Shown here in pieces: positions 894 through 60,303 of a stretch of DNA of 64,000 nucleotides (within the stretch, counting starts at the first letter, position 1; each line of letters opens with the position of its first letter). The translations under genes were made by a program, and so were the position numbers. Below the pieces are notes generated by a model that searched no databases, was not told where the DNA came from, and worked only from the letters and a program-made list of their open reading frames with translations. The stretch is from Myxococcota bacterium. GTDB taxonomy: Bacteria > Myxococcota_A > UBA9160 > UBA6930. The DNA lies in contig JANQFK010000053.1 in the NCBI GenBank assembly GCA_028277885.1, positions 1 to 64,000 of the forward strand, read 5' to 3'.

Positions 894-919
894 TCAAGCG
901 CGCTCCGCCGTCCGCCGAT
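894..919 (+). promoter_or_regulatory. Sigma28 (FliA)-like promoter for the EAL gene
   Basis: TCAAGC (894-899), 14 bases, then GCCGAT (914-919). It lies 43 bases before the GTG chosen as start of the EAL gene. The same two boxes with 14-15 base spacing recur upstream of about ten genes in the window. Transcription would begin near 926, which rules out any start codon upstream of that point. Confidence 0.65.
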
Positions 920-961
920 CCACCCGGGGCAGCGGCCGTCCCGCCGCCGTCCGGAGGAGCC

Positions 962-1819
962 GTGGACTCCCTTCGCCACCTCGACCCGCCCGAGCCCCCG
1001 ACGGGCGCGCCCGACGCCCAGCAGCTCGAGAGCGAGCTGCGCCGGGCGCTCGAGCAGGGGGACCTCCACGTCGACTACCAGCCCAAGCTCGAGCTCGCGA
1101 GCGGGCGCGTGGTGGGGTTCGAGGCCCTGGCGCGCTGGCACCACCCGGAGCTCGGCAGCGTACCGCCCGACCGCTTCATCCCCGTGGCCGAGCAGGCGGG
1201 GCTGATCGCGGCCCTCGGCGAGCACGTGCTGCGCACGGCCTGCCGCCAGGCCCGGAGCTGGCGCGACGAGGGCCTCCCCGCCGTGCGGCTCTCGGTCAAC
1301 TTCTCCGCCCAGCAGTTCGTCGACGAGGCGCTCGCCGACCGGGTGATCGAGACCCTGGACCGGTTCGCCATCACCGGGAGGCAGCTCGACGTCGAGATCA
1401 CCGAGAGCGCGATGGCGCGGAACCGGGGCGTCACCGCACGCGTGCTCGAGCGGCTGAAGGGCATCGGCGTCACCGTCTCCCTCGACGACTTCGGGACGGG
1501 CTGCGCCTCGCTCGTCCAGCTGAGGCGCTTCGCGGTGGACACGGTCAAGATCGACGGCTGCTTCGTGCGCGGCGTGACCCATGACCCCGAGGCCGCGGAG
1601 CTCACCGCCGCCATCATCTCCGGGGCGAAGGCGCTCAGCCTGAACCTCGTCGCCGAGGGCGTCGAGACCGAGGACCAGCGCCTGTTCCTGGCGCGGCTCG
1701 GCTGCGACGAGGTGCAGGGCTACCTGTTCAGCCCGCCGCTCTCGCCCGAGGACGCCACGGCGTTCCTGCGCGAGCGCGCGCCCGCCTCCGAGCCGGCGCG
1801 CGCCTTCGCGTCGGGCTAG
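962..1819 (+). CDS. EAL-domain cyclic-di-GMP phosphodiesterase, stand-alone
   Basis: This cytoplasmic protein of 285 residues is nearly all EAL domain (about 20-270). Catalytic motifs are intact: FEALARW (EAL at 54-56), NFS, EITES, DDFGTG, KIDG, EGVET and QGYLFSPPL, so it should cleave cyclic-di-GMP to pGpG. No sensor or GGDEF domain is present. The frame stays open back to 839, but GTG at 962 is preferred because GGAGGAG sits 3-4 bases upstream and a FliA-like promoter at 894-919 would start transcription around 926. The short N-terminal Pro-rich stretch (about residues 8-17) is not a signal peptide. It follows glnK after a hairpin, so it is probably a separate unit tied to motility rather than nitrogen. 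Confidence 0.93.
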   Translation: MDSLRHLDPPEPPTGAPDAQQLESELRRALEQGDLHVDYQPKLELASGRVVGFEALARWHHPELGSVPPDRFIPVAEQAGLIAALGEHVLRTACRQARSWRDEGLPAVRLSVNFSAQQFVDEALADRVIETLDRFAITGRQLDVEITESAMARNRGVTARVLERLKGIGVTVSLDDFGTGCASLVQLRRFAVDTVKIDGCFVRGVTHDPEAAELTAAIISGAKALSLNLVAEGVETEDQRLFLARLGCDEVQGYLFSPPLSPEDATAFLRERAPASEPARAFASG

Positions 1820-1820
1820 G

Positions 1821-1881
1821 GCGCCGACCCGGGACGGTCGGCCTCCGCCGCAATGCGAGCCCGCAGGCCTCGCTCGGCTAG
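1821..1881. repeat. Dispersed two-hairpin palindromic repeat, copy 1
   Basis: Copy of a roughly 63-base element found at several gene ends in this window. The stems here are imperfect: GCCGACC (1823-1829) pairs with GGTCGGC (1836-1842), and a second GCGAG/CTCGC stem lies around 1855-1873. It ends in CTAG, whose reverse strand gives the stop codon of the cyclase gene. It lies between two convergent genes and may act as a bidirectional terminator. Confidence 0.75.
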
Positions 1882-2669
1882 CGGCCCGCCGGCTCCCCGA
1901 GGATCGCCACGGCGCGCAGCGGGGCGCCGCTGCCGCCACGGATCTTCATGGGCAGGGCCACGACCCGGAAGCCGCGGGGCGGCAGGGCCTCGAGGTTCGC
2001 CAGGTTCTCGAAGGCCGGGACCTCGTGCTCGAAGAGGATCCGGTGGCTCTCGAAGAGCGTCGACCAGCCGGGGTCGATGCTCGCCGTGTCGATCCCCACC
2101 GCGGACGCGCGACGCGTCTCGGCCAGCCAGCGCGCGGCCTCGGGGTGGAGCCCGGGGAAGTGGAGCTTCGCGACGGCGCCGGGGCCACGCTCGGCGGTGC
2201 CCAGGTAGCGCGCCCGGTCCGGCCAGTGGCGGCCGAAGCCGGTGCGCAGCAGCACGATGCTGCCCTCGGGGATCGTGCCGTGGCGCGCCTCCCAGGCGAC
2301 CAGCTCCGCCACGCCCACGGCGTGGCCGGGGTTCCGGGCGCAGGCATCGCTCACGTCCACCAGCACGCCCTGGCCGATCAGTCGCTCGAGGGGGATGGCG
2401 TCCACGGTGGAGCGGCCCTCGGCGAAGTGGATCGGCGCGTCCACGTGGGTGCCGCCGTGCTCCGCCGAGCGGAAGCGGTGGGCGGCGTAGTAGTAGCCGG
2501 CCTCGGTGCGTCCCTCGAACCCGCGCTCGAGCACGAAGCCCTCCTCGGCGGTGGGCCAGTAGACGGTCTCGGCGTCGAAGGCGTGGGTGAGGTCCACCAG
2601 GCGTCCCGGCGGCGCCGAGCCCTCGCAGGCGAGGGCCGAGGCGGCGACGACGGCGAGGGCGAGCTTCAC
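1878..2669 (-). CDS. Cyclase-family (kynurenine formamidase-like) metal hydrolase, predicted lipoprotein
   Basis: This 263-residue protein belongs to the cyclase/KynB family of metal-dependent hydrolases. The hallmark metal site HGGTHVDAPIH spans residues 71-81, with further family features RLVDLTHAF near the N-terminus and VLLRTGF mid-protein. Residues 1-15 (MKLALAVVAASALAC) form a lipoprotein signal with Cys15 after a short hydrophobic core, so it is probably anchored outside the inner membrane, unlike cytosolic kynurenine formamidases. The substrate is therefore not assignable; formamidase or polyketide-cyclase activity would be a guess. The start is GTG with TAGATT (2676-2681) only 6 bases away, a leaderless arrangement. 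The stop codon lies inside a dispersed repeat. Confidence 0.88.
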   Translation of the reverse strand: MKLALAVVAASALACEGSAPPGRLVDLTHAFDAETVYWPTAEEGFVLERGFEGRTEAGYYYAAHRFRSAEHGGTHVDAPIHFAEGRSTVDAIPLERLIGQGVLVDVSDACARNPGHAVGVAELVAWEARHGTIPEGSIVLLRTGFGRHWPDRARYLGTAERGPGAVAKLHFPGLHPEAARWLAETRRASAVGIDTASIDPGWSTLFESHRILFEHEVPAFENLANLEALPPRGFRVVALPMKIRGGSGAPLRAVAILGEPAGR

Positions 2670-2675
2670 GCCCGC

Positions 2676-2681
2676 AATCTA
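2676..2681 (-). promoter_or_regulatory. Minus-10 box of a leaderless promoter (cyclase gene)
   Basis: Reads TAGATT on the minus strand and ends 6 bases before the GTG start at 2669. Normal minus-10 to start-site spacing would put the first transcribed base at or next to the start codon. No clear minus-35 box is visible. Confidence 0.5.
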
Positions 2682-2712
2682 CCGCAGGCGCCGCCGTGGG
2701 CGTGGGGGACGA

Positions 2713-3378
2713 TCAGTCCCCGTGGAAGCGCACCTGCTCGGCGAACCCGATCAGCTCGTCGAGCTGGTCCGGCGTCCGCGCGGTCAGGATGAAGCCGAGC
2801 GCCCAGTCGCCCTCGACGCGCACCAGGTACGCCTGGAGGATCTCCATACGGGGAAGGCGGAGCGCGTAGTCGCGCCGGTGGAAGGTCCGCCCGCCCAGGG
2901 TGAGGGGCTCGATCCCGCCCGTCGGGTGGTAGGGCATGGCGCCGCGCTGGAGGGTGTTGTCCATCACGCCCAGGAAGTCGGGGCCGGAGGTCACGCCCGG
3001 CAGGTGGCCGACGCCCTCGGCCAGCACGATCAGGCTCGGGTTGAAGGGGACCGGCGACCCCAGTGGCTGCTCGGACAGGGTGAGGAGCTGGTGGGTGCGC
3101 GCCAGGGAGTCCTCGAGCTGGGCGCGCAGCAGCGCGTCGTCGCCCGCCAGCGCCGAGTTGCCGACCTTGCGCAGGTGCTCCTCGGCCTCCCGGGGCGCCA
3201 CGGCCCAGCCCTCGCGCAGCGGCAGGGAGAATCCGAAGAAGTCGTTCTCGTAGTGGGTGTCCGAGAGGCGGTCGTCGGTGGGGCCGCCGGAGGCGTCCTG
3301 GGAGACGAAGTTGCACGCCGGCACGAGGGCCAGCGCGAGCAGGGCGCACCGGGCGCCGCGTCGGATCGGGTGGGTCAC
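2713..3378 (-). CDS. Small lipoprotein of unknown function
   Basis: This 221-residue protein starts at GTG 3378, with GGAGG 7 bases upstream, and has a lipoprotein signal (CALLALALVPAC, Cys about residue 21). The mature part begins with an acidic Asn/Asp/Gly-rich linker and then HYENDFFGFSLPLREGWAVA, the style of a secreted domain that contains a 'fits a PsbP/DUF1795-like curve' beta start. The rest has no motif I recognise. A C-terminal helix (ARTPDQLDELIGFAEQVRF) is also typical of such small periplasmic domains. The frame remains open upstream to 3663 inside the next gene, but the signal peptide and ribosome site define the start. A FliA-like promoter at 3407-3435 suggests control with the motility set. 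Function unknown. Confidence 0.8.
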   Translation of the reverse strand: MTHPIRRGARCALLALALVPACNFVSQDASGGPTDDRLSDTHYENDFFGFSLPLREGWAVAPREAEEHLRKVGNSALAGDDALLRAQLEDSLARTHQLLTLSEQPLGSPVPFNPSLIVLAEGVGHLPGVTSGPDFLGVMDNTLQRGAMPYHPTGGIEPLTLGGRTFHRRDYALRLPRMEILQAYLVRVEGDWALGFILTARTPDQLDELIGFAEQVRFHGD

Positions 3379-3406
3379 GCCGGGCCTCCGTGGGGTCCGC
3401 AGGCTC

Positions 3407-3435
3407 GTTTCGGCGCGACGCGGCGGGGGGCTTGA
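3407..3435 (-). promoter_or_regulatory. Sigma28-like promoter for the small lipoprotein gene
   Basis: On the minus strand TCAAGC (3435-3430), 15 bases, then GCCGAA (3414-3409). Transcription would begin near 3400, giving a leader of about 20 bases that carries GGAGG before the GTG at 3378. Confidence 0.5.
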
Positions 3436-3451
3436 GCGGGGCGCGCGCCCA

Positions 3452-3515
3452 GGAGGCCGACCCAGGATGGGTCGGCCTCCGCCGCAAGGCGAGCCCGAAG
3501 GGCTCGCTCGGCTAG
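3452..3515. repeat. Dispersed two-hairpin palindromic repeat, copy 2 (best conserved)
   Basis: Two perfect hairpins in tandem. The first has a 12-bp stem, GGAGGCCGACCC (3452-3463) with GGGTCGGCCTCC (3469-3480), and a 5-base loop. The second has an 8-bp stem, GCGAGCCC (3489-3496) with GGGCTCGC (3500-3507), and loop GAA. It ends with CTAG (3512-3515), which provides the TAG stop of the minus-strand amidotransferase gene. Confidence 0.85.
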
Positions 3516-4207: not shown

Positions 4208-4305
4208 GCCCGGCCCGTCGCCGCGACCCGCACGCCGAGGTAGGATCCCGCCCGACGCTGGACGCCCCGCGCGGCGGCAACCCCCCAGCGCAGCGGAGGA
4301 ACACG

Positions 4306-4788: not shown

Positions 4789-4801
4789 GCCGGCCCCGGC
4801 C

Positions 4802-5192: not shown

Positions 5193-5215
5193 CGACCCTC
5201 CGTCGGGGATGCCCC

Positions 5216-12625: not shown

Positions 12626-12649
12626 GCGGGGGTCAAGCGAAACCCCCGC
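12626..12649 (+). terminator. Hairpin after addA
   Basis: Perfect 8-bp stem GCGGGGGT (12626-12633) and ACCCCCGC (12642-12649) with an 8-base loop, about 50 bases after the addA stop and without a T-run. It overlaps the minus-35 side of the promoter for the following gene, so it could also be regulatory. Confidence 0.45.
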
Positions 12650-12658
12650 CTCGCCGAT
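12633..12658 (+). promoter_or_regulatory. Sigma28-like promoter for the DUF945 gene
   Basis: TCAAGC (12633-12638), exactly 14 bases, GCCGAT (12653-12658). Transcription would start near 12665, leaving a leader of about 47 bases. That leader contains GGGTCGA (12662-12668) and TCGACCC (12680-12686), a possible hairpin or operator. Confidence 0.65.
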
Positions 12659-12711: not shown

Positions 12712-14250
12712 ATGAAGAAGGTACTCGTCCTCGCAGGCCTGCTCGTCGTGCTCGGCGTCGTGGGCGCCGTCGCGCTCGGCAACTTCCGGGCCCACCAGTT
12801 CCACAACGGCATCCTCGAAGGCCTGGAGCAGGGTGGCGGCGAGGAGCTGAACATCGTCGAGTCGAGCTTCGCGCCGGGCGTGCTGGGCTCCACCTCCACG
12901 GTGGTGTTCGCCCTCGAGCCCGACGTCGGCGAGGACGAGCAGCCGGTCGTCTCCTTCGAGATGGAGAACGACATCCGGCACGGCGCGCTCCCGCTGATGG
13001 GCTGGATCGGCTCCGGCGGCGGCGGGACGCCCGTGATCGCCACGATGCACACCACCCTCGCCCTGGAAGGCGAAGTGAAGGACGCGGTGCAGGAGGCCCT
13101 GGGCGAGCTGCCGACCCTGGAGGTCGACACCAAGGTGCGCGCCTCGGGCGTCGGCGAGAGCCACGTGTCCATGAAGCCGATCCGCGCCCAGGGTGGCGGC
13201 GAAGCCGGCGAGTTCGAGCTGAACTGGAAGGGCCTCGAGGGCGACTTCGTCTTCACCGCGGACATGGACAAGGTGGCCGGCAGCATCGAGTCCGGCGGCC
13301 TCGAGATCACCAGCGCGCTGGCGAACTTCACGGCCTCGAGCTTCACCTGGACGCTCGACCAGGACACCGACGCCAGCGGCGTGCCCGTGGGCTTCGGCTC
13401 CTTCTCCCTCGACTCCATCGACTTCCAGCCGATCCTGCTCCCGGCGCCGGTGGTCTCCGTGAAGGGCGTCTCCTTGGAGCAGAGCAGCCGCGTCCAGGGG
13501 GGCAAGTTCACCTGGGACCTCGTCCACCGCGTGGAGAGCGTCACCGCCGGCGACGAGGTGTACGGGCCCGGCGTGGTCCAGTTCGAGCTCCGCGACCTCG
13601 ACGCCAAGGCCCTGGCCGACGTGAGCGAGAGCCTCCAGCAGGTGCAGAAGCAGCTCCAGAAGGGCGAGGCCGGCGCGGCGTTCCAGTCCGAGGTGGGCGA
13701 GGACCTCACCAAGGCGCTGCCCAAGCTGGCCGCCCACTCGCCCGGGCTCGAGTTCACCGAGATCAGCCTCACGACGCCCGAGGGCACGGTGCGCGGCAAG
13801 ATCCTCGTGAACCTCGACGGCTCCAACGCCGAGATGCTCCAGAACCCGCTGATGGCGGTGGGTGCGCTCAGCGCCAAGGCCTCCGCCGAGGCGCCGGCGG
13901 AGCTGTTCGCCTCGATGATCGACCTGTGGGCGCGCAAGCAGGTGGCGAGCGGGACGATGAGCGTCGGCGAGGACATGGAGGAGACCGTCGCCTACGTGCG
14001 CGACAGCCTGATCCACAACCTGCGCAAGCAGGGCCTCGTGGTGTTCGACGGCGAGCGCTACACGACCCGCATCGACTGGAGCCAGGGCCGGCTCACGGTG
14101 AACGGCATCCCCGTGAACCCGATGGAGCTCGGCATGCTGACCGCGAACCCCGGCTCGGGCATGAGCTTCCCCGACGAGGGCGGCCCGGGCGGTGGCTTCG
14201 GCGGAGACTTCGGCGACGGCGACTTCCCGGCGGAGCTCGGGGACTTCTAG
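12712..14250 (+). CDS. DUF945 (YdgA-like) family protein, membrane-anchored
   Basis: This 512-residue protein has one N-terminal membrane segment (KKVLVLAGLLVVLGVVGAVAL, residues 2-22) and a long exported part rich in beta-strand patterns. The family signature of YdgA/DUF945 is visible in the early HNGILEGLEQG region with FAPGVLGSTSTVVF, and in repeated LEFTEISLTTPEGTVRG-like strands. The C-terminus is Gly/Asp/Phe-rich (about residues 488-512). Known family members are poorly understood inner-membrane/periplasm proteins linked to surface or envelope traits in enterobacteria. Start ATG 12712 gives a clean signal anchor. A FliA-like promoter at 12633-12658 suggests co-regulation with motility genes, which would be a new hint to function. 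Confidence 0.85.
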   Translation: MKKVLVLAGLLVVLGVVGAVALGNFRAHQFHNGILEGLEQGGGEELNIVESSFAPGVLGSTSTVVFALEPDVGEDEQPVVSFEMENDIRHGALPLMGWIGSGGGGTPVIATMHTTLALEGEVKDAVQEALGELPTLEVDTKVRASGVGESHVSMKPIRAQGGGEAGEFELNWKGLEGDFVFTADMDKVAGSIESGGLEITSALANFTASSFTWTLDQDTDASGVPVGFGSFSLDSIDFQPILLPAPVVSVKGVSLEQSSRVQGGKFTWDLVHRVESVTAGDEVYGPGVVQFELRDLDAKALADVSESLQQVQKQLQKGEAGAAFQSEVGEDLTKALPKLAAHSPGLEFTEISLTTPEGTVRGKILVNLDGSNAEMLQNPLMAVGALSAKASAEAPAELFASMIDLWARKQVASGTMSVGEDMEETVAYVRDSLIHNLRKQGLVVFDGERYTTRIDWSQGRLTVNGIPVNPMELGMLTANPGSGMSFPDEGGPGGGFGGDFGDGDFPAELGDF

Positions 14251-21500: not shown

Positions 21501-22565
21501 TCAGGAGGCCGCGCCGGCCGCCAGGCGGGCGAGGATGCGCGGCGCCTCCATGGCGACCAGCAGCACCTCGCCGACGTCGGGGTCGAGCTGCCCGCCGGGT
21601 CCCGCGTCGACGTAGAGCGCCATCTCGATCGACCCCTCGTGGTGGACCGGGAACAGGCCCACGGACGCGGCGGGGGGCACGTCGAGGGTGCGGAAGAAGC
21701 GCTCGTGCACCGGGTGGGGGGCGAGGGGGCCCAGGTAGTGGGCGCCGGTGTTGGCGACCAGGCCGAACACGGTGCCCGGGACCGGCGGCACGACCAGCCG
21801 GGAGACGCGCTCCGAGCGGATGCCGCGGCCGGCGCCCGCCCAGCCCACCCAGGCGCGTCCGCGCCGCCCGAGCAGCACCACGCGGGGCGCCTTGCCGAGG
21901 GCGTGGCGGGCCAGGATCCAGCCCACCTGCTCGCGGTCCGTCGCGGCGGCGAGCATGCGCTTGGCCTCGGCCAGCTCGTCCACCGGGCGGATCTCGCGGG
22001 AGGCGTCGCCGTGCCAGTGGCACACGGTCTCCACGAGGTCGAGCTCCTCGGACCAGGGCTCCTCGGCGCGGGGCTCGGGAGCCGGCGGCGCCGCGGCGGC
22101 CGGGACCGGCGGCGCGGGCGCGGGGGCCACGGGGACCGCCGGCGCCGGGCTCGCCGCAGGCGGCGCGGCGGCTTCGCCCTCGGGGGTGAGGGGCGCCAGC
22201 TCGCGCTCCACGGGGGCCCTCACCTCGCCGGGGCGTAGCGGGGCGCTGCGCCCGCTCGGCGGCAGGACGGCGGCCCCCTCCTGGTAGATGCGCTCGAAGC
22301 TGGTCTGGCTGATCAGCTCCTGGTCGCTCGGCTCCCGGGAGGGGCCCAGGATCTCGGTCCGCAGCGCCCGGAGGCGCTCCTCGGCGACGAGGCCGAGGTC
22401 CAGCAGCACCGTCGTGAGGCCGCAGCCGCGGCGCTCCTGCACCTTGCGGGCGCGCTCGAGGTCCGGCGGGTCGAGGTCGGACCGGAGCAGCCGCTCGGCG
22501 AGCTCCGTCTCGAAATCCGCGCCGGCCTGCACGCTACCGGGATCGTCTGCGTCCGAACTGCCCAT
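21501..22565 (-). CDS. MshEN/GspE-N-type domain protein with Pro/Ala linker and C-terminal GAF-like region
   Basis: This 354-residue protein starts at ATG 22565. Residues about 15-85 (ELAERLLRSDLDPPDLERARKVQERRGCGLTTVLLDLGLVAEERL) look like the helical N-terminal domain of type II/IV secretion ATPases (MshEN/GspE N), a fold that can bind cyclic-di-GMP. A Pro/Ala linker (about 145-185) leads to a C-terminal region (about 195-350, RMLAAATDREQVGWILARHAL, VVLLGRRGRAWVGW, SVGLFPVH) resembling a GAF-like sensor. There is no ATPase domain, so this is not a secretion motor. It probably acts as a cytosolic adaptor or c-di-GMP effector; that is inferred. A sigma28-like promoter (22621-22647) precedes it and the dispersed repeat lies 19 bases past its stop. 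Confidence 0.7.
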   Translation of the reverse strand: MGSSDADDPGSVQAGADFETELAERLLRSDLDPPDLERARKVQERRGCGLTTVLLDLGLVAEERLRALRTEILGPSREPSDQELISQTSFERIYQEGAAVLPPSGRSAPLRPGEVRAPVERELAPLTPEGEAAAPPAASPAPAVPVAPAPAPPVPAAAAPPAPEPRAEEPWSEELDLVETVCHWHGDASREIRPVDELAEAKRMLAAATDREQVGWILARHALGKAPRVVLLGRRGRAWVGWAGAGRGIRSERVSRLVVPPVPGTVFGLVANTGAHYLGPLAPHPVHERFFRTLDVPPAASVGLFPVHHEGSIEMALYVDAGPGGQLDPDVGEVLLVAMEAPRILARLAAGAAS

Positions 22566-22620: not shown

Positions 22621-22647
22621 ATCGGCGCGGCCCCCCGGCCGACTTGA
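22621..22647 (-). promoter_or_regulatory. Sigma28-like promoter for the MshEN-type gene
   Basis: On the minus strand TCAAGT (22647-22642), 15 bases, GCCGAT (22626-22621). Transcription would start near 22613, with a leader of about 48 bases before ATG 22565. Confidence 0.6.
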
Positions 22648-23614: not shown

Positions 23615-23640
23615 TCCACCCGGCGGCGCGAGTCGCCGAT
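23615..23640 (+). promoter_or_regulatory. Possible sigma28-like promoter for the EAL-HDOD gene
   Basis: GCCGAT (23635-23640) with the standard 14-base spacing from TCCACC (23615-23620), which matches the usual TCAAGT poorly. Position and spacing are right but the upstream box is weak. Confidence 0.35.
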
Positions 23641-29944: not shown

Positions 29945-29970
29945 TCAAGTAGGGGGGTTGGGCTCCCGAT
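29945..29970 (+). promoter_or_regulatory. Sigma28-like promoter of the TonB receptor-YfiR-MCP operon
   Basis: TCAAGT (29945-29950), 14 bases, CCCGAT (29965-29970). Transcription would start near 29977, about 70 bases before the ATG at 30048, and drive all three genes. Confidence 0.55.
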
Positions 29971-32090: not shown

Positions 32091-32632
32091 ACGCGGACGC
32101 CGAAGGGCGCCCGGGCGCCGCACGAAGCAGCAGCCTCATCCTGGTTCTCGGCCTCGCGGCCGGGATGCTGGGCGCCAGCGGGCCCGGCGAGTACCAGGTG
32201 AAGGCCGCCTTCCTGTTCAACTTCGCGAAGTTCGTGGAGTGGCCGGGCGGCGCCATGGCGTCCGGACGCGAGTTCTCGATCTGCGTCGTCGGCGACGGCG
32301 ACGTCTCCGAGGAGCTCGAGGCCGTGGTGACGGGTCGCGACATCGACGGCAAGCCCGTGGCGGTGCGGACCCTGTCGGACCCGACGGCGGGCGCGGGCTG
32401 CCAGATCCTCTTCGCCATCGACGACGCCGCCGCCGCCGAGGCCCGCGACAGCTCGCCTCCCGGGACGCTCACCGTGGGGCAGAGCCAGGGCTTCGCGCGC
32501 CAGGGCGGGATGATCAACTTCATCCTGGTCGACAAGAAGGTGCGCTTCGAGGTCAACAAGCGGAGCGCCGAGACGGCGGGCCTCTCGATCAGCTCGCACC
32601 TCCTGAAGCTCGCCCACGACGTGTACGAGTAG
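32078..32632 (+). CDS. yfiR: YfiR-family (DUF4154) periplasmic regulator
   Basis: This 184-residue exported protein starts at GTG 32078, overlapping the end of the receptor gene by 13 bases, which implies translational coupling. A signal peptide covers about residues 1-36 (LILVLGLAAGMLGASG). The mature start YQVKAAFLFNFAKFVEWP is the YfiR hallmark. It is followed by FSICVVGDGDV, GCQILFAIDD, GFARQGGMINFILVDKKVRFEVNKRSAETAGLSISSHLLKLAHDVY, also diagnostic. In Pseudomonas YfiR binds and represses the diguanylate cyclase YfiN through its periplasmic part. Here the next gene encodes a sensor with the same kind of periplasmic domain but a chemotaxis-type output, so YfiR may control it. Two cysteines (positions about 69 and 109) could form the known disulfide. 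Confidence 0.93.
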   Translation: MDVLDADAEGRPGAARSSSLILVLGLAAGMLGASGPGEYQVKAAFLFNFAKFVEWPGGAMASGREFSICVVGDGDVSEELEAVVTGRDIDGKPVAVRTLSDPTAGAGCQILFAIDDAAAAEARDSSPPGTLTVGQSQGFARQGGMINFILVDKKVRFEVNKRSAETAGLSISSHLLKLAHDVYE

Positions 32633-32647
32633 GGGGCGAAGCCCGGG

Positions 32648-34678
32648 ATGTCCGCCTTCCGCGACCGCTCGCTCCGTCGCAAGCTCACCACCACGGTCAT
32701 GCTGACCACGGGGTGCGCGCTGCTGCTCGCCTTCGCGGTGCTCACCGTGAACGAGGTGGTGACGGCGCGGCGCTCCCTGGTCGAGGGCGCCCAGACCCTG
32801 GCTGGCGTGGTCGGGATCAACAGCACCGCCGCCCTGATGTTCGACGATCCGGCGGCGGCCGAGGAGACGCTCTCCGCCCTCGCGGCGGACCGCAACCTCG
32901 AGGGCGCGGCGCTCTACCGCACCGACGGATCGCTGTTCGCCTCCTTCGTCCGGAAGGAGGGCAGTGCGGTGCCCGACCGGCCGGGCCGCGGGCAGGCCTT
33001 CGGCGACGGCTCCCTCGAGGTCTTCCACGAGATCGTGGTCCAGGAGGAGCCCATCGGGACCCTCTACCTGCGCTCGAGCACCCGGGCCATGATGGCCAAC
33101 ATCCGCATCTTCGTGGCGGTGCTGTGCGTCGTCATGGCCGTCGCGATGACCCTCGCCTCCCTGGTGGCGACGAGCCTGCGCCGCGCGGTGCAGGGGCCCA
33201 TCGACGCCCTGGTGGAGCGCTCCGAGGCCATGGCCCGCGGCGACCTCGGCACCGAGGTTCCCGTGGTCAGCCGGGACGAGATCGGCGTGCTGGCGAGCAG
33301 CTTCAACAAGATGGGCCAGAGCCTCCGGGCCGTGGTGGTCCAGGTCCGCCACAACATCCGCGACCTCGCCGGCGTGGGCGAGACCCTGGAGACGACCAGC
33401 GCGAACGTCGTGGCCGAGACCCACCGCCAGGGCAGGACCATCGAGTCGGCGGCCGAGTCCATCGGGCGGGTGACGAGCTCGATCCACGAGGTGAACTCCG
33501 GAGTCAACGAGCTCGCCGAGACGGGCCGTGGCACGTCGCGCTCCATCGCGAAGATGGGCGGCTCCATCGCCCGGGTCGCGGGCCGCATGGACGAGCTGGC
33601 CCCCGCCATCGAGACCACCTCCACGGCCATCGGCCAGCTCACGGCGAGCGTCGAGGAGATCGCCGACAACGTGGGCACGCTGAACGACGCCACGGCCACC
33701 ACCGAGCGCTCCCTCACCGAGCTCACCGCCTCGGTGCGCAGCGTCCGCGACAACGCCCAGCGCAGCCACGAGCTCTCCCAGGACGCCCACCACGAAGCCG
33801 AGCGCGGCATGCGCTCGGTGAACGACACCATCGCGTCGATGCACGAGATCGAGACCAGCTTCAAGCGGCTCGAGGAGATCGTGACCCGCCTCGCCGAGCG
33901 CTCCAACGAGATCGGCGAGATCGTGAAGGTGATCGACGAGGTGGCGGACGAGACCCAGCTGCTCTCGCTGAACGCGGCCATCATCGCCTCCCAGGCCGGC
34001 GAGCAGGGCAGTGCCTTCGCGGTGGTGGCCGACGAGGTGAAGCGCCTCGCCGAGCGCACCGCGCTCTCCACCCGGGAGATCGCCGACCTGGTCCAGGGCA
34101 TGCGCTCCGAGTCCGGCAATGCGGTCCGCGCCATGGCGGACGGCGCCGAGACCGTGGAGCGGGGCGTGGGACGCTCCCAGGAGGCGGGCGACCGGCTGCG
34201 TGGGATCATGGAGAGCTCGTCGCTCTCGAAGTCCATGGTGGACGAGATCGCCGGGGCCACCGAGAGCCAGGCCGCGGCCCTGGTGCGGGTCGAGGAGGCC
34301 ATGTCCCAGGTGCGGGCCTTCGTGGAGCAGATCCACCGCTCCACCCAGGAGCAGAGCCGGGCCAGCGGCGAGATCGCCAACATGGTCGAGCAGGTGCAGG
34401 CCCTGGGGAACGAGGTGAAGACCGCCACCGTGGCCCAGACCCGGGAGAGCGGGCAGATCACCGAGGCCATGGAGGGCGTCACGCGCATGATCGACCGCAT
34501 CTCCCAGGCCACCGAGGAGCAGCGCCGGGAGAGCCAGCAGATCGACCGCGCCCTCGGCGTGTTCCGGGAGCTGGCCGACGAGAGCGTGCGGCGCGTCGCC
34601 GAGCTCAAGCGGGTGACCGCGACCCTGGTGGAGCGCTCCGAGCAGCTCGACGCGGAGATCGGACGCTTCACGGTCTGA
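32648..34678 (+). CDS. CHASE8-HAMP-MCP signal transducer
   Basis: This 676-residue inner-membrane receptor has transmembrane helix 1 at about 14-34 and a small periplasmic CHASE8-like domain at about 35-150 (AQTLAGVVGINSTAALMFDDPAAAEETLSAL, as in YfiN). Helix 2 lies at about 150-175, HAMP at 175-230, and a long helical cytoplasmic signalling region runs to 676. The tip reads ADETQLLSLNAAIIASQAGEQGSAFAVVADEVKRLAERT (about 432-470), close to the canonical chemoreceptor hairpin but with Ile-Ala-Ser in place of Glu-Ala-Ala, so coupling to CheA/CheW may differ. YfiN uses a GGDEF output with this sensor; here an MCP output is used. It is third gene of the TonB receptor-YfiR operon. Confidence 0.93.
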   Translation: MSAFRDRSLRRKLTTTVMLTTGCALLLAFAVLTVNEVVTARRSLVEGAQTLAGVVGINSTAALMFDDPAAAEETLSALAADRNLEGAALYRTDGSLFASFVRKEGSAVPDRPGRGQAFGDGSLEVFHEIVVQEEPIGTLYLRSSTRAMMANIRIFVAVLCVVMAVAMTLASLVATSLRRAVQGPIDALVERSEAMARGDLGTEVPVVSRDEIGVLASSFNKMGQSLRAVVVQVRHNIRDLAGVGETLETTSANVVAETHRQGRTIESAAESIGRVTSSIHEVNSGVNELAETGRGTSRSIAKMGGSIARVAGRMDELAPAIETTSTAIGQLTASVEEIADNVGTLNDATATTERSLTELTASVRSVRDNAQRSHELSQDAHHEAERGMRSVNDTIASMHEIETSFKRLEEIVTRLAERSNEIGEIVKVIDEVADETQLLSLNAAIIASQAGEQGSAFAVVADEVKRLAERTALSTREIADLVQGMRSESGNAVRAMADGAETVERGVGRSQEAGDRLRGIMESSSLSKSMVDEIAGATESQAAALVRVEEAMSQVRAFVEQIHRSTQEQSRASGEIANMVEQVQALGNEVKTATVAQTRESGQITEAMEGVTRMIDRISQATEEQRRESQQIDRALGVFRELADESVRRVAELKRVTATLVERSEQLDAEIGRFTV

Positions 34679-34743: not shown

Positions 34744-34769
34744 TCAACCCGAGCGCAGCTCCGGCCGAA
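34744..34769 (+). promoter_or_regulatory. Sigma28-like promoter for the OLD-like ATPase gene
   Basis: TCAACC (34744-34749), 14 bases, GCCGAA (34764-34769). A GGGAGG/CCTCCC hairpin (34781-34800) lies in the predicted leader, before ATG 34816. Confidence 0.5.
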
Positions 34770-34815: not shown

Positions 34816-36831
34816 ATGAGGCTCGAGAAGTTCCGGGTCACCAACTACCGAAGCGTGAAGGACAGCGGCTGGATCGGGGTCGGCGACCAGACGGCCCTGG
34901 TGGGCCGGAACGAGAGCGGGAAGAGCAACCTGCTGCTCGCCCTGCGCAGCCTGAAGCCGCCGGAGCGCCTCGAGCGGCTCTGCGTCTCCTCGGACTTCCC
35001 GGCCGACCGCTCGCGTCTCGACTACTCCGAGGAGCTCGACGTGGTGCAGACCGTGTGGTCCTTCACCGCCGCCGAGCGCGAGCACCTCGCCACGCTCTTC
35101 CCCCGCGCGCGCCACGTCACCCGGGTCGAGATCGGCCGCGGCTTCGAGCCGCTGCGCTGGGTGCGCTTCGCGGACATTCCCGCCGCCGAGGCGCCCCTCG
35201 CCCAGGCGAAGGATCTGTTCACCCGGCTCGGCACCGCGACCGGCGACGAGGCCGTGGAGGAGCAGACCGTGGACGCCGGCGTGCGTCGCGCCCTCCAGGA
35301 CCTGGAGTCCGCCATCGGCCGCACCTCCCCGGACCCGAGCGCCTGGGCCGAGGGCGTGCGCCACGCCCTCGCGGACCTGCGACCGCCCATGGACGCCCAC
35401 GCCCCGGGCCTCGCCGAGGGCGCCCGGGACGCGCTGGCGGAGATCTCGGAGCTCGCCGACCAGGTCGCCAACGACACCGACGCCGAGCACGCCGCCAAGG
35501 ACTGGGTGCTCCAGCAGCTGCCCACCTTCCTCTACCTGGACGACTACGCCGAGATCCAGGGCCACCAGGACCTGGCCGCCTTCCTCGAGCGCCGCCGGGA
35601 GAACCGCCCGGCCGACGGCGACGTCTACTTCGAGAAGCTCCTCAGCGTTGCGGGGCTCGACCCGAGCGCCGTGGAGACCCTGCTCCACGCCGACCACGAG
35701 GCGCGTCGCCAGATCGCCAACCGGGCCGGCGCCGTGGTGACCCGCAAGCTGCGCGAGCTGTGGAACGAGCGGGCGCTGAAGATCCGCTTCAACCTCGACG
35801 GGAGCCACTTCAACACCCTCGTCTCGGACCCGAACTCCCTCTACGACGTGGAGGTGAACCTGAACGAGCGGAGCCGCGGCTTCCGCTGGTTCTTCTCCTT
35901 CTACGTGACCTTCGCCGCCGACGCCAAGAGCGGCTCCACCGAGAACATGATCCTGCTGCTGGACGAGCCGGGCCTCTACCTGCACGCCCTCGGCCAGCGA
36001 GACCTGCTGAACCACTTCAAGTCGGACTTCCCGAACCAGATCCTGTACTCGACCCACTCGCCCTTCCTGGTCCCGCCGGACGACCTCTCGGCGGTGCGCA
36101 CCGTGACCATCTCCGAGGAGGAGGGCACCACGGTGAGCGACCGGCCCACCGGGGACGAGAAGACCCTGTTCCCGATCCTCCACTCCCTCGGGATGGAGGT
36201 GTCGCGGGGGCTGTTCGGCGAGGGCTGGCACCTCGCGGTGTCGGAGCTGACCGACTACTGGTTCCTGCGCGCGATCTCCGACTTCGTGCGCTCGCGCTCC
36301 GGGCGCTGCCTGCCCCGGGACCTCCACATCACGCCGGCCGGCGGCTGCGCGCGGCTTCCCTACATGGTGGCGCTGCTCTCGGGCCAGGCGCCGCGGGCCC
36401 TGGTGCTGCTCACCGACGAGCCCGGCGTCCTGCGCAGCAGCTCCGCGTCCGAGGTGGCCAAGCTGCTGCCGGAGCGGAACCTGGTGCGAGTGGCCGATGC
36501 CCTCGACGAGCCCCTGGGCGAGGGGGCCGGCGGCGCGGACGTCGAGGACCTGATCGACCCGCAGCTCTACGACCGCTTCGTGCGCTACTGCTGGCGCAGC
36601 GAGCTCAAGGAGCGGAAGCTCGAGCCCGACGCCAGCGTGCCCCGGGTGGTGGAGCGCTACGCCAGGGCCCTGGCCGCCCTCGACATCGAGTTCAACCGCG
36701 CGCGCCCGGCGCGGCTCTTCCTGCGCGGCATGGGCAAGAACCCCACCAGCGTTCTGCCCAAGTCGACCCGGGAGCGCTTCGAGCGGCTGTTCGAGCGGAT
36801 CCACGAGCGGGTCCGGGAGCTCGGGGGCTGA
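34816..36831 (+). CDS. OLD-family-like AAA ATPase with degenerate TOPRIM-like end
   Basis: This 671-residue cytosolic protein begins MRLEKFRVTNYRSVKDSGWIGVGDQTALVGRNESGKSNLLLALRSL, with Walker A GRNESGKSN at about 35-43. A coiled insertion follows. The Walker B/signature region is ENMILLLDEPGLYLHALGQRDLL (about 376-398), then the sensor histidine ILYSTHSPFLVPPDD (about 411-425). A C-terminal part has SELTDYWFL, HITPAGGCARLPYMVALL and ALVLLTDEPG, the order of an OLD TOPRIM nuclease, but with Thr-Asp-Glu-Pro where DxD is expected. OLD ATPases include phage P2 Old and GajA of Gabija. No GajB helicase is adjacent, so defence is only one option. A FliA-like promoter argues for a link with motility signalling instead. 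Confidence 0.8.
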   Translation: MRLEKFRVTNYRSVKDSGWIGVGDQTALVGRNESGKSNLLLALRSLKPPERLERLCVSSDFPADRSRLDYSEELDVVQTVWSFTAAEREHLATLFPRARHVTRVEIGRGFEPLRWVRFADIPAAEAPLAQAKDLFTRLGTATGDEAVEEQTVDAGVRRALQDLESAIGRTSPDPSAWAEGVRHALADLRPPMDAHAPGLAEGARDALAEISELADQVANDTDAEHAAKDWVLQQLPTFLYLDDYAEIQGHQDLAAFLERRRENRPADGDVYFEKLLSVAGLDPSAVETLLHADHEARRQIANRAGAVVTRKLRELWNERALKIRFNLDGSHFNTLVSDPNSLYDVEVNLNERSRGFRWFFSFYVTFAADAKSGSTENMILLLDEPGLYLHALGQRDLLNHFKSDFPNQILYSTHSPFLVPPDDLSAVRTVTISEEEGTTVSDRPTGDEKTLFPILHSLGMEVSRGLFGEGWHLAVSELTDYWFLRAISDFVRSRSGRCLPRDLHITPAGGCARLPYMVALLSGQAPRALVLLTDEPGVLRSSSASEVAKLLPERNLVRVADALDEPLGEGAGGADVEDLIDPQLYDRFVRYCWRSELKERKLEPDASVPRVVERYARALAALDIEFNRARPARLFLRGMGKNPTSVLPKSTRERFERLFERIHERVRELGG

Positions 36832-37106: not shown

Positions 37107-38657
37107 TCAGGCCGACGCGTCGGCGGTGCTCTCCACCCGGCGGCAGACGAAGCGGTTGCGGCCCGCCTCCTTGGCCTCGTAGAGGCAGGCGTCGGCGAGG
37201 GCCAGCAGGGCCTCGCCGTCCTCCGCGGACGCCACGCGCTCCACGCAGGCGCCGCCCACGCTGGCCGTCACGCTCAGGTCGGGCTCCCCGTCCCGGGAGA
37301 GGGCGGTCTCGGCCACGCGCTTGCGGATCCGCTCGGCCACGGTCTCGAGGATCTCCAGGGTGGTGTTCCCGAGCACCACCACGAACTCCTCGCCGCCGTA
37401 GCGGGCGGCCAGGTCGGTGTCGCGGGTGGCCTCGGAGAGGCAGCGGGCCACGAGCTTCAGCACCTCGTCGCCGGTCTGGTGCCCGTGGGTGTCGTTGAAC
37501 TTCTTGAAGTGGTCGACGTCCACCACCAGCAGGCCGAGGGCGTTCTCGCTGGGCCCGGAGATGCGCGCCGCGACCACGCGCTCGAGGGTCTCGTCGAACT
37601 GGGCCCGGTTCGGGATGCCGGTGAGCTTGTCCGTGGTGGCCTTGGACTCGAGCTCCTGGTTCTTGCGCTCGAGCTCCTCGGCCCGGGAGGTGGTCTGCTC
37701 GAGGTCGAGGGCCGCTCCCAGGCTGATCTGCACCATCTCCATGCGGGCGCGGTCGAGGATGCCCTGATAGGACTCCCCATCCACGTCCATGTTCAGCATG
37801 CTCGCCATCTCGGAAACGTCCTGCTCGAGGCTCACCACGAAGGCGTCGATCTCGTCCTCGGAGACGCCGCAGTACTCGGTGCCCAGGGCGTAGAGGGTCT
37901 TCAGCGCCGAGCCGCACTGTTGGGGACGGCACAGCACCGTGGCCGTGGCGTTGGCGAGGGCCATGATGCGTGCCAGCATGCCGACCGGCTCCTCGGCGTC
38001 GTCGGAGACGTGCTCGGGGTCGCCCCACCCGCGCACGGTCTGGACGATAAGGGGCGGCAGCTGCCAGGAATCCAGCAGCGCGGCTCCCACCTCGTGGGAG
38101 TCGTAGCCGAGCTGCTCCGCCTCGAGGGAGGCCGGCGGGAGCTCCCCTTCGGCCTGCTGGATGAGCGCCCCGTACTCGTCGGGGATGCACTCCGCCATCA
38201 CGATCTGGCCGAGGCGCCCGAGCAGGCCGCACAGGAAGGCCTCGTCACCGTGCGGGTTGCGCACCAGCCGCGCCAGGGCTCGGCCCGCCACCGCCATGGT
38301 GAGGCTGCGGCGCCAGTAGTCGATGTAGTCGAAGCCCCGGTCGCTCTTGCGCGGCAGCTCGTCGGTGAGGGAGAAGCTCAGGGCCATGAGCTTCACGGTC
38401 TTCAGTCCCAGCCGCATGGTCGCCGCGTCCAGGGAGGAGACGGCGTCGCCGCGACGGAACATGGAGGAGTTGGCGAGCTTGAGGATCTTTGCCGAGAGGG
38501 CCGGGTCGCGGGAGAGGATCGCGGCGAGATCGTCGATGGTGGCGTTCTCGTCGTTGCTGACGCGCAGCACCTCGAGCGCGACCGTCGGAGGACTCGGCAG
38601 CTTCTCGGCCTTGGCGATCGCGCCCGGAAGCCGATCGAGCACGCTGGCCTCGCCCAT
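37107..38657 (-). CDS. HDOD-GGDEF diguanylate cyclase
   Basis: This 516-residue cytosolic protein starts at ATG 38657, with GGAGGGG upstream. Residues about 12-210 form an HDOD domain (LPSPPTVALEVLRVSNDENATIDDLAAILSRDPALSAKILKLANSS, then a GYDSHEVGAALLDSWQLPP block). A helical linker (about 215-350, ending SRAEELERKNQELESKATTD) leads to a GGDEF domain. The active loop is RYGGEEF (GGEEF at 421-425) and the inhibitory site RDTD (412-415) stands 5 residues before it. It should make cyclic-di-GMP with product inhibition, opposite to the EAL protein at 0.96 kb. A sigma28-like promoter at 38719-38744 drives it. It converges on the ATPase-lipoprotein unit. Confidence 0.95.
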   Translation of the reverse strand: MGEASVLDRLPGAIAKAEKLPSPPTVALEVLRVSNDENATIDDLAAILSRDPALSAKILKLANSSMFRRGDAVSSLDAATMRLGLKTVKLMALSFSLTDELPRKSDRGFDYIDYWRRSLTMAVAGRALARLVRNPHGDEAFLCGLLGRLGQIVMAECIPDEYGALIQQAEGELPPASLEAEQLGYDSHEVGAALLDSWQLPPLIVQTVRGWGDPEHVSDDAEEPVGMLARIMALANATATVLCRPQQCGSALKTLYALGTEYCGVSEDEIDAFVVSLEQDVSEMASMLNMDVDGESYQGILDRARMEMVQISLGAALDLEQTTSRAEELERKNQELESKATTDKLTGIPNRAQFDETLERVVAARISGPSENALGLLVVDVDHFKKFNDTHGHQTGDEVLKLVARCLSEATRDTDLAARYGGEEFVVVLGNTTLEILETVAERIRKRVAETALSRDGEPDLSVTASVGGACVERVASAEDGEALLALADACLYEAKEAGRNRFVCRRVESTADASA

Positions 38658-38718: not shown

Positions 38719-38744
38719 ATCGTCTGCTGCGTGTTCCTACTTGA
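38719..38744 (-). promoter_or_regulatory. Sigma28-like promoter for HDOD-GGDEF gene
   Basis: On the minus strand TCAAGT (38744-38739), exactly 14 bases, GACGAT (38724-38719). The leader would be about 55 bases to ATG 38657. Confidence 0.6.
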
Positions 38745-49231: not shown

Positions 49232-49245
49232 CCGCACGAGAGGAG

Positions 49246-49273
49246 CCTTCGGCTGGACGCTTTCTCGACTCGA
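49246..49273 (-). promoter_or_regulatory. Sigma28-like promoter for M16 peptidase gene
   Basis: On the minus strand TCGAGT (49273-49268), 14 bases, GCCGAA (49253-49248). The first box differs from TCAAGT by one base. Transcription would start near 49240, a few bases before the start codon. Confidence 0.45.
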
Positions 49274-49345
49274 GGGGTCCCGGCTCAAGGTGCTCCGGAG
49301 ACTAGACGTTCCGGCTCCCCGCGTCCCGTTCTCCCCGGGCGCGGA

Positions 49346-49351
49346 TATCCT
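49346..49351 (+). promoter_or_regulatory. Minus-10 box, leaderless promoter of hemW
   Basis: TATCCT, 6 bases before ATG 49358. A weaker sigma28-like pair, TCAAGG (49285-49290) and GACGTT (49305-49310), also faces hemW. Confidence 0.45.
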
Positions 49352-49357
49352 CCGCCC

Positions 49358-56650: not shown

Positions 56651-56756
56651 CAAGTCCGGCGCAAAGGCCGCGGACCCACGGCGCCGCGCCCGGCGCCGGC
56701 GAGCCCCCAGGGCCCCGCCAGGCCCCGCTCGTCGTCGGTCGCGGCGGCTCTCCTGC

Positions 56757-56782
56757 TCAAGTCGGATCGGGCCCCCGACGAA
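56757..56782 (+). promoter_or_regulatory. Sigma28-like promoter for lon
   Basis: TCAAGT (56757-56762), 14 bases, GACGAA (56777-56782). Transcription would start about 5 bases before ATG 56793, leaving room for a very short leader only, so the second box match may be partly chance. Confidence 0.4.
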
Positions 56783-56792
56783 TCACGAGGCG

Positions 56793-59198
<2,406 letters not shown>

Positions 59199-59202
59199 GC
59201 GG

Positions 59203-59223
59203 GGCGAGTCCTTCGGACTCGCC
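59203..59223. repeat. Hairpin after lon, diverged relative of the dispersed repeat
   Basis: GGCGAGTCC (59203-59211), loop TTC, GGACTCGCC (59215-59223): a perfect 9-bp stem four bases after the lon stop (TAG). It resembles the second hairpin of the dispersed element (GCGAGCCC-TTC-GGGCTCGC) and is followed by GTGGGTCGGC, like its first hairpin. It probably terminates lon transcription. Confidence 0.6.
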
Positions 59224-59273
59224 TCGTGGGTCGGCTGCGGCCCCCACCCGGCTCGAACCCGCGCCGGCGGGGC

Positions 59274-59279
59274 TACGCT
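59274..59279 (+). promoter_or_regulatory. Minus-10 box, leaderless promoter of thiL
   Basis: TACGCT, 6 bases before ATG 59286. It supports 59286 over an in-frame GTG at 59226. Confidence 0.45.
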
Positions 59280-59285
59280 CGCGCC

Positions 59286-60239
59286 ATGCGGCTCGCGGAC
59301 GTCGGGGAGTTCGGCCTGATCGAGCGCATCGCGCGCGCGGCCGAGCGCGTCTCGGGCGTCGCGGTGCGGCGCGGCATCGGCCACGACGCCGCGCTGCTGC
59401 GGGCGCGCCGGGGCGAGGACGTCGCCGTGAGCGCCGACACCCTGGTGGAGGGCGTGCACTTCCGGCTGGACCGGGAGGGCCCGCGCCACGTGGGCCGACG
59501 CGCCCTGGTGGCGAACCTCTCGGACCTCGCCGCCACCGGGGCGCGGCCGCTGGGCTTCACCCTGGCCCTGGCGGCGCCGCCGCGGCTCGCGGTGCGCGAC
59601 GCCCTGGGCTTCGTGAACGGCATGCTCGACGTGGGCGCCGAGCACGACTGCCCGCTGGTGGGCGGCAACGTGGCCCGGGCCCGGGAGGTCTCCCTCGCCA
59701 TCACCGTGCTGGGCGGGGTGGGGCGCGGCCGGGCCCTCGACCGCAGCGGCGCCCGGCCCGGCGACCGGCTGTTCGTGACCGGCGTGCTCGGCGCCGCGGC
59801 CCTGGCCCGGGCCCGCTGCGAGCGCCGCGGCGGGCGGCTGCGCCACTGCCCGACGCCCCGCCTGGCCGCCGGGCGCGCCCTGGGGCGCAGCGCGGCGGTG
59901 CGCGCCTGCATCGACGTCTCGGACGGGCTGGTGGCGGACCTCGGCCACCTCGCCCGGGCCTCGGGGGTGGGGGCCGAGCTCGAGGCGGGCCGGGTCCCCC
60001 GGCCCCGCGGCTTCGAGGCGGCCTGCCGCCGGCTGGGCCTCGAGCCCGACCGGCTGGCCCTGGCCGGGGGCGAGGACTACGAGCTGCTCTTCGCCGTGGC
60101 GCCCCGGGGCCCCGGCGCCGGGGCGCTCGCCCGCCGCCTGGGGGTCCCGGTCCAGGAGATCGGCCGCATCCGGGCCCGCGGCCTGCACCTCCGGGGGGCG
60201 CGGATCGAGCCCGGGGCGGGGGGCTGGCGCCACTTCTGA
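59286..60239 (+). CDS. thiL: Thiamine-monophosphate kinase
   Basis: This 317-residue enzyme makes thiamine diphosphate from thiamine monophosphate and ATP in the cytosol. It begins VGEFGLIERIARA and shows the AIRS/PurM-fold blocks GIGHDAALLR, SADTLVEGVHF, GRRALVANLSDLAATGARPLGF, DCPLVGGNVARA, CIDVSDGLVADLGHLA and LAGGEDYELLFAV. The start is ATG 59286, marked by the minus-10 box; an upstream in-frame GTG exists but lacks support. It is followed 72 bases later by the chemotaxis operon, which has its own promoter-like motif. Confidence 0.95.
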   Translation: MRLADVGEFGLIERIARAAERVSGVAVRRGIGHDAALLRARRGEDVAVSADTLVEGVHFRLDREGPRHVGRRALVANLSDLAATGARPLGFTLALAAPPRLAVRDALGFVNGMLDVGAEHDCPLVGGNVARAREVSLAITVLGGVGRGRALDRSGARPGDRLFVTGVLGAAALARARCERRGGRLRHCPTPRLAAGRALGRSAAVRACIDVSDGLVADLGHLARASGVGAELEAGRVPRPRGFEAACRRLGLEPDRLALAGGEDYELLFAVAPRGPGAGALARRLGVPVQEIGRIRARGLHLRGARIEPGAGGWRHF

Positions 60240-60276
60240 GCCCGCTCCCGGGGGCCGGCGCGGCTCCCCTGGGCCC

Positions 60277-60303
60277 TCCAGAAGGGTCCGGAGGGGGCCG
60301 ATA
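60277..60303 (+). promoter_or_regulatory. Sigma28-like promoter of the chemotaxis operon
   Basis: TCCAGA (60277-60282), 14 bases, GCCGATA (60297-60303), the best minus-10 match to the classic FliA box in the window. The GTG start lies 8 bases further, so the transcript would be leaderless or nearly so. Confidence 0.6.

What the first reader, a model, noticed from the sequence alone, without database searches (positions are those of the whole stretch)
894..60303. A FliA/sigma28-like promoter family links c-di-GMP, chemotaxis, envelope and OLD-ATPase genes
Seen directly: two boxes, TCAAG(T/C) or close, and GCCGA(T/A) or close, separated by 14 bases (15 in two cases). The plus-strand sites are 894-919 (EAL), 12633-12658 (DUF945), 29945-29970 (TonB-YfiR-MCP), 34744-34769 (OLD-like), 56757-56782 (lon) and 60277-60303 (MCP-CheW-CheY-CheA). 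The minus-strand sites are 3407-3435 (lipoprotein), 22621-22647 (MshEN protein), 38719-38744 (HDOD-GGDEF) and 49246-49273 (M16). Two weaker ones are at 23615 and 38812. Known: FliA (sigma28) promoters have a GCCGATAA minus-10 box and a short minus-35 near this spacing. Inference: these genes form one motility-signalling regulon, which gives a testable role to unknown genes such as the DUF945 protein, the OLD-like ATPase and the small lipoprotein.
Basis: partly seen in the sequence, partly recalled or inferred. Interest (0 to 1): 0.82.

Follow-up and report, generated by a model that had tools for sequence, protein, structure and literature searches.

The report
Flagellar-type sigma factor runs pili genes
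The repeated two-box DNA signal looks like a real promoter for FliA, a switch protein best known from flagella, but in this uncultured bacterial class it mostly sits in front of type IV pilus, c-di-GMP and chemosensing genes, and FliA is kept in species that appear to have no flagella.

Summary
TCAAG-N15-GCCGAT is a sigma28-type promoter. In 837 kb of the host genome, 10 of 11 exact copies lie in the 8.8% of DNA between genes, with a sharp spacing peak. The tenth main site and 23615 are weak, and 38812 fails. The genome has one strong FliA/WhiG sigma.

The regulon is not a flagellar one. Flagellin carries a sigma54 box. Strong sites precede pilB, the minor-pilin/pilY1 operon, pilM and a PilT-like gene, plus PilZ, EAL/GGDEF/HD-GYP, MCP and CheY-CheA genes. 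Across 91 genomes of the class, FliA is found in 78 and FlhA in 24; 58 have FliA without FlhA. The four genomes lacking PilB lack FliA and have 0-3 copies of the motif. The pilB site is present in 29 of 29 testable genomes. fliA itself has a conserved sigma54-type box.

Closest precedent: Rubrobacter WhiG (type IV pili and c-di-GMP enzymes), and Bdellovibrio FliA. This is therefore a new variant of a known kind, in a different phylum. No transcription start or mutant was tested.

The parts
894..919 (+). sigma28-type promoter TCAAG-N15-GCCGAT before EAL gene 962-1819
   Evidence: exact match; PWM 21.8; EAL Pfam 247.6 bits
962..1819 (+). EAL-domain (c-di-GMP phosphodiesterase type) gene
3409..3435 (-). 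sigma28-type promoter TCAAG-N16-GCCGAA before lipoprotein-like gene
   Evidence: PWM 24.0
2713..3378 (-). 221 aa lipoprotein-like protein, no Pfam family
   Evidence: N-terminus with a ...LVPAC lipobox-like stretch
12633..12658 (+). sigma28-type promoter TCAAG-N15-GCCGAT before DUF945 gene
   Evidence: exact match; PWM 24.6; remote relative in G016 has a site scoring 26.8 about 80 bp before the gene
12712..14250 (+). DUF945 protein
   Evidence: PF06097 224 bits
22621..22647 (-). sigma28-type promoter TCAAG-N16-GCCGAT
   Evidence: intact boxes; PWM 20.8
21501..22532 (-). 343 aa protein (reader: MshEN); no Pfam match
23615..23640 (+). weak candidate (perfect -10, poor -35) before the EAL-HDOD gene 23680-24933
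   Evidence: PWM 14.1
29945..29970 (+). sigma28-type promoter (TCAAG-N15-CCCGAT) before TonB receptor-YfiR-MCP genes
   Evidence: PWM 21.4
30048..34678 (+). TonB-dependent receptor, YfiR/HmsC-like protein, CHASE8-HAMP-MCP
34744..34769 (+). sigma28-type promoter (TCAAC-N15-GCCGAA) before OLD-like ATPase
   Evidence: PWM 19.6; relatives in G002 (23.4) and G085 (20.1) keep an upstream site
34816..36831 (+). AAA_15/AAA_21 (OLD-like) ATPase
38719..38744 (-). sigma28-type promoter (TCAAG-N15-GACGAT) before HDOD-GGDEF gene
   Evidence: PWM 22.4
37107..38657 (-). HDOD-GGDEF protein
49248..49273 (-). weak candidate (TCGAG-N15-GCCGAA) before the likely real M16 start (49231)
   Evidence: PWM 16.1; start placed
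56757..56782 (+). candidate (TCAAG-N15-GACGAA) before lon-type gene 56793-59198
   Evidence: PWM 21.7; departs from GCCGAT at two positions of the -10
60277..60302 (+). sigma28-type promoter (TCCAG-N15-GCCGATA) before MCP-CheW-CheY-CheA genes
   Evidence: PWM 22.8
60312..63998 (+). MCP, CheW, CheY, CheA-type genes (start of a chemosensory cluster)

Best explanation
The motif is the promoter of the single strong FliA/WhiG-type (sigma28) factor of this uncultured Myxococcota-type bacterium. In its class this sigma serves as the type IV pilus and surface-signalling sigma. Proposed order of events: an NtrC-family activator (possibly the response regulator encoded immediately upstream of fliA) fires fliA from a sigma54 promoter. 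FliA-RNA polymerase then transcribes pilB, the minor-pilin/pilY1 operon, pilM and onwards, a PilT-like gene, PilZ, EAL, GGDEF and HD-GYP genes, chemosensory genes and about a dozen envelope and unknown genes, including the window's DUF945, OLD-like, YfiR/TonB and lipoprotein genes. Shown by sequence: promoter enrichment, geometry and position, the sigma, conservation of sites before orthologous genes, FliA without FlhA in 58 genomes, and joint absence of FliA, PilB and motif in four. Inferred: that FliA is the factor that binds, which activator fires fliA, the operon extents, and that the output is twitching or surface behaviour. The spread over the class also suggests (inferred) that this role does not depend on flagella.
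For: Spacing peak and intergenic enrichment. Window sites top a PWM trained elsewhere. One sigma over the FliA_WhiG cut-off, 250 bits to the WhiG of PDB 6pfv and 196 to the FliA of 6pmi. Regulon genes by Pfam. Strong sites before pilB, fimT-pilVWX-pilY1 and pilM in the own genome and before the same three in G084 and G052, which lack FlhA; in G061, also without FlhA, pilM is strong (25.7) and pilB weaker (16.2). PilB promoter T[AC]AAG-N15-[GA]CCGAT, mostly followed by AA, in 29/29 genomes with enough upstream DNA, own genome included; boxes conserved over most of the spacer. PP2C gene beside fliA: 38 of 47 loci above 18; divergent response regulator: 31 of 37. sigma54-type box before fliA in 63/70 loci, 3.1 in shuffles. 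FliA 78/91, FlhA 24/91, 58 with FliA but no FlhA. The four genomes without PilB are without FliA and have 0-3 motif copies, against medians of 15.5-18 in FliA+ genomes. 1397 motif copies class-wide against 64 reversed controls.
Against: No transcription start, no binding data, no mutant. The PilB/FliA correlation rests on four genomes, three in one family, so the test (P 0.0003) ignores relatedness. Nine genomes have PilB and the motif but no FliA found; for seven the pilB contigs are short (3-35 kb) so fliA could be unassembled, but this is not shown, G001 was not examined and G087 is 96% complete. FlhA absence in incomplete MAGs is not proof of no flagellum. Five of the window's nine good sites depart from the consensus.
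Confidence: 0.85

Rival explanations
1. Ordinary flagellar sigma28 regulon: the genes are the usual late flagellar/chemotaxis set plus a few extras.
For: The host genome has FlhA and flagellin and chemosensory genes carry the sites.
Against: Flagellin has a sigma54 box TGGCAC-N5-TTGCA and the only strong site inside the flagellar gene run precedes an NtrC-like activator gene. 58 of 78 genomes with FliA have no FlhA. pilB, not flagellin, carries the most canonical box.
Confidence: 0.07
2. Another sigma factor (one of the other sigma70-family or ECF proteins) uses these promoters, and FliA is incidental.
For: Binding was not tested; the genome has several other sigma factors. Nine genomes keep the motif with no FliA found.
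Against: The boxes are the known FliA/WhiG consensus (-35 TAAA, -10 GCCGATAA in PMC8325347; TTAAG-N16-CCGATA for Bdellovibrio in PMC3627812). fliA lies about 30-40 kb from pilB in many genomes. FliA, PilB and motif are missing together in four genomes.
Confidence: 0.06
3. The motif is a chance or codon-driven pattern in 74% GC DNA.
For: One-mismatch versions are frequent (253 against 66 in the reversed control).
Against: Exact copies are intergenic with sharp spacing, placed before orthologous genes across the class, 1397 against 64 reversed.
Confidence: 0.01

Closest known systems
Rubrobacter radiotolerans WhiG / RsiG-(c-di-GMP) switch (PMC8325347)
   Same: FliA/WhiG-family sigma; same promoter class; main targets are three type IV pilus transcription units and DGC/PDE genes
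   Different: Actinobacteria; regulated by RsiG (reported only in Actinobacteria). No RsiG signature was seen in called genes of about 1 Mb of the own genome, and fliA here carries sigma54-type boxes
Bdellovibrio bacteriovorus FliA as attack-phase master regulator (PMC3627812, PMC5430801)
   Same: Nearly identical promoter geometry (TTAAG-N16-CCGATA); non-flagellar targets including chemotaxis, surface, protease and Tad (type IVb) pilus genes
   Different: Bdellovibrio is flagellate and its flagellin is FliA-dependent; pilA is described there as not FliA-regulated. Here type IVa-type assembly genes are targets and 58 carriers lack FlhA
Actinoplanes missouriensis WhiG-like/FliA-family sigmas (as cited in PMC8325347)
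   Same: Direct transcription of both pilus and flagellar genes
   Different: Zoospore stage of a sporulating actinomycete
Synechocystis SigF (PMC2758279)
   Same: Alternative group 3 sigma for type IV pili
   Different: SigF groups with SigB and reads TAGGC/GGTAA boxes, not the FliA consensus
Pseudomonas putida FliA regulon (BifA, PMC5300878, abstract only)
   Same: FliA partly controls a c-di-GMP phosphodiesterase gene
   Different: Flagellar context

Membership tests
FliA/WhiG (sigma28) sigma factor | Full-length match to TIGR02479 over its cut-off | tested here: met
   285.3 bits, cut-off 189.6
FliA/WhiG (sigma28) sigma factor | Sigma regions 2, 3 and 4; best solved relatives are WhiG/FliA | tested here: met
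   Pfam r2, r3, r4; 6pfv/6pfj 250/247 bits, 6pmi FliA 196 bits
FliA/WhiG (sigma28) sigma factor | Recognises the cognate promoters in vitro or in vivo | not testable with these tools
   needs transcription assay
sigma28-dependent promoter | -35 TAAAG/TCAAG and -10 GCCGAT(AA) with fixed spacing | tested here: met
   spacer 15, one more than the 14 I recall for E. coli
sigma28-dependent promoter | Mapped 5' end downstream of the -10 | not testable with these tools
   no RNA data
Flagellar (class III) sigma28 regulon | Flagellin transcribed from a sigma28 promoter | tested here: not met
   flagellin upstream has a sigma54 box and no sigma28 box
Flagellar (class III) sigma28 regulon | Sigma retained only with a flagellum | tested here: not met
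   58 of 78 FliA genomes without FlhA
FliA-FlgM circuit | FlgM anti-sigma encoded in the genome | tested here: not met
   No FlgM found in own genome or its order; 8 genomes of family f12 have one
[quoted passage not shown]
   no hit in called genes of about 1 Mb of 5.2 Mb
Synechocystis SigF-type pilus sigma | TAGGC / GGTAA core promoter | tested here: not met
   the conserved boxes are T[AC]AAG / GCCGATAA

The most novel reading that the evidence does not exclude
In one family of the class (f12) a FlgM-type anti-sigma, itself preceded by a sigma28-type box in most cases examined, sits next to fliA even in genomes without FlhA (G003, G004; unlinked in G010, G011). This would be a complete FliA-FlgM checkpoint working on the type IV pilus instead of the flagellum, with FlgM inactivated or removed by a route other than flagellar export.
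Probability: 0.2. Interest if true: 0.85.

Novelty: new variant of a known kind. Interest (0 to 1): 0.66.

Why it matters
FliA is usually read as a marker of flagella. Here it marks type IV pili across a class of uncultured bacteria, so annotating FliA as flagellar would mislead. Together with Rubrobacter and Bdellovibrio, it suggests that sigma28 control of pili plus c-di-GMP has arisen or persisted in several phyla. It also gives a ready-made list of candidate surface-motility genes, including unknown ones (DUF945, DUF4124, OLD-like ATPase, TonB-YfiR-MCP).

Tried and rejected
My first sigma54 regular expression had a spacing error and found none; the corrected one is. My GC3 gene caller over-extended the M16 gene and fails on lower-GC relatives, so relatives were analysed by tblastn. 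The own pilB site overlaps the end of the preceding gene call, so it is counted as genic. EAL relatives were uninformative: EAL domains recur in many proteins, only L193 showed a strong site and it may serve a longer protein. FlgM was searched for as a universal regulator: not found outside f12. The idea that 38812 is a site: rejected on score. A sigma-factor tree and structure prediction were not run because they would not change the verdict.
Full report
THE OBSERVATION. I tested them against the genome the window lies in (G000, 5.19 Mb, 91 contigs; 73-75% GC in the sampled contigs). In 837 kb taken as long stretches of seven contigs, TCAAG-Nk-GCCGAT was counted for k = 9 to 23 in genes and between genes. 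At k = 15 there are 10 intergenic and 1 genic copies although intergenic DNA is 8.8% of the sample; at other spacings there is at most one of either (binomial P about 3e-10). A weight matrix was then trained on 31 sites of the own genome outside the window. At score >19, 0.07 hits are expected in the window's 4.7 kb of intergenic DNA and 9 are seen. The tenth main site (49246) is weak, 23615 weaker, 38812 no site. Four sites have intact boxes (894, 12633, 3409-3435, 22621-22647); the others have one or two departures and should be held with less confidence, lon (GACGAA) least of the nine.

THE SIGMA. The genome has one protein over the FliA_WhiG cut-off (C12:14004-14681, 285 bits; the next is 113 bits). 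Its best solved relatives are the WhiG of 6pfv/6pfj (250 bits) and the FliA of 6pmi (196 bits). Among most relatives with named records it is 73-95% identical; these are MAGs labelled Myxococcota, Myxococcales, Deltaproteobacteria or Proteobacteria, one being UBA9160, so the organism is an uncultured member of that group (a GTDB class name such as UBA9160 is an inference, not looked up).

THE REGULON. Genes after the sites in the own genome: pilB-pilT-pilC-pilS-pilR; a run of N-methyl pilin-like genes leading to a PilY1-sized gene; pilM and the following pilN, O, P, Q-like genes (names after pilM, and pilVWX-Y1, from order and size; PilM, PilB, PilT, PilC, PilS by Pfam); a PilT-like ATPase; NtrC-family response regulators; CheY-CheA; MCPs; three PilZ proteins; EAL, GGDEF-EAL and CHASE2-HD proteins; a roadblock/LC7 protein; bactofilin; FHA-M23; a PP2C gene beside fliA; and three DUF4124 proteins. 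The flagellin gene by contrast has TGGCAC-N5-TTGCA, a sigma54 box, and no sigma28 box. In the flagellar gene run the one strong site precedes an NtrC-like activator gene.

CLASS-WIDE TEST. In 91 genomes of the class FliA is found in 78 (39 of 43 of high quality), FlhA in 24 (13 of 43) and a PilB match in 87. FliA occurs without FlhA in 58, and FliA and FlhA are unassociated in the table (P 0.74). The four genomes without PilB (G005, G080, G083, G086) are also without FliA and have 1, 0, 3 and 1 copies of the motif; FliA-bearing genomes have medians of 18 (with FlhA) and 15.5 (without), and the reversed control averages about one or less. Three of the four belong to one family and have small genomes, so this is two or more losses, not four independent ones. 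Nine genomes have PilB and the motif but no FliA found; for seven the contig bearing pilB is only 3-35 kb, whereas fliA usually lies about 30-40 kb from pilB where both are on one contig, so an assembly gap is likely but not shown; G001's contigs were not examined. In G087 pilB reads into pilQ, which suggests a deletion or misassembly.

CONSERVED SITES. Upstream of pilB, 29 of 29 genomes with enough DNA (own genome included) carry T[AC]AAG-N15-[GA]CCGAT, mostly followed by AA, starting about 94-210 bp before the aligned start. The boxes are invariant or nearly so while most spacer columns are not. G084, G052 and G061, all without FlhA, carry sites before pilM (25.7-26.8), and G084 and G052 before the minor pilin operon (25.7-28.3); G061's pilB site is a weaker N14 form (16.2). 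The PP2C gene beside fliA scores above 18 in 38 of 47 loci and the divergent response regulator in 31 of 37. fliA itself has TGGC[AC]-N6-[TGC][TC]GC in 63 of 70 loci against 3.1 in shuffles, suggesting the order sigma54, FliA, pili. Two rare window genes were followed: the only DUF945 relative found (G016, 34% identity) and the two OLD-like relatives (G002, G085; 48 and 39%) each have a strong site just before the gene.

PRIOR WORK. WhiG of Rubrobacter radiotolerans is inferred to control type IV pilus operons and DGC/PDE genes through the same boxes, with 12 predicted promoters matched by mapped starts, under the c-di-GMP anti-sigma RsiG (PMC8325347). Bdellovibrio attack-phase promoters carry TTAAG-N16-CCGATA in 92 of 140 cases (PMC3627812) and its FliA drives the Tad pilus operon (PMC5430801). 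Synechocystis SigF controls pilA1 but through unrelated boxes (PMC2758279). I found no paper on this class with FliA and pili, within the limits of that library.

LIMITS. All evidence is sequence. Binding by FliA, the transcription starts, the identity of the fliA activator and the behaviour controlled are inferred. Correlations over genomes ignore relatedness. The regulon list from the own genome covers about a sixth of it in full plus exact-match and some one-mismatch sites elsewhere.

Noticed in passing
own genome, e.g. G000:C12:16747, C30:168181, C6:61091; L060:3588, L061:3517, L064:3489: In 6 of 40 intergenic sigma28-type sites an ATG lies exactly 9 nt after the -10 hexamer, which would give leaderless or nearly leaderless mRNAs; two are DUF4124 genes.
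   Followed up: partly
G002, G003, G004, G006, G007, G009 (next to fliA); G010, G011 (elsewhere); L182-L185, L239:10231: FlgM-type anti-sigma genes were found only in family f12, including genomes without FlhA, usually preceded by a sigma28-type box.
   Followed up: partly
L221 (G087:C13): pilB breaks at about residue 519 and continues into pilQ from about residue 867, a possible deletion of the pilus locus, in a 96% complete genome with no FliA found.
   Followed up: no
G000:C12:51217, L232 and L235 regions: A sigma28-type box lies inside pilS about 270-315 bp before pilR in own genome, G052 and G061, a possible internal promoter.
   Followed up: partly
G000:C27:21831-21856: Strong sigma28-type site before an NtrC-like activator gene in the flagellar gene run, which would place flagella below FliA through sigma54.
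   Followed up: no
G000:C6:60524-61081: 185 aa coiled-coil-like protein of no Pfam family with a sigma28-type, possibly leaderless promoter.
   Followed up: no
window 49231-50077: A + strand frame over this stretch is open with gene-like GC3, so a divergent gene probably occupies the region called as the M16 N-terminus.
   Followed up: no
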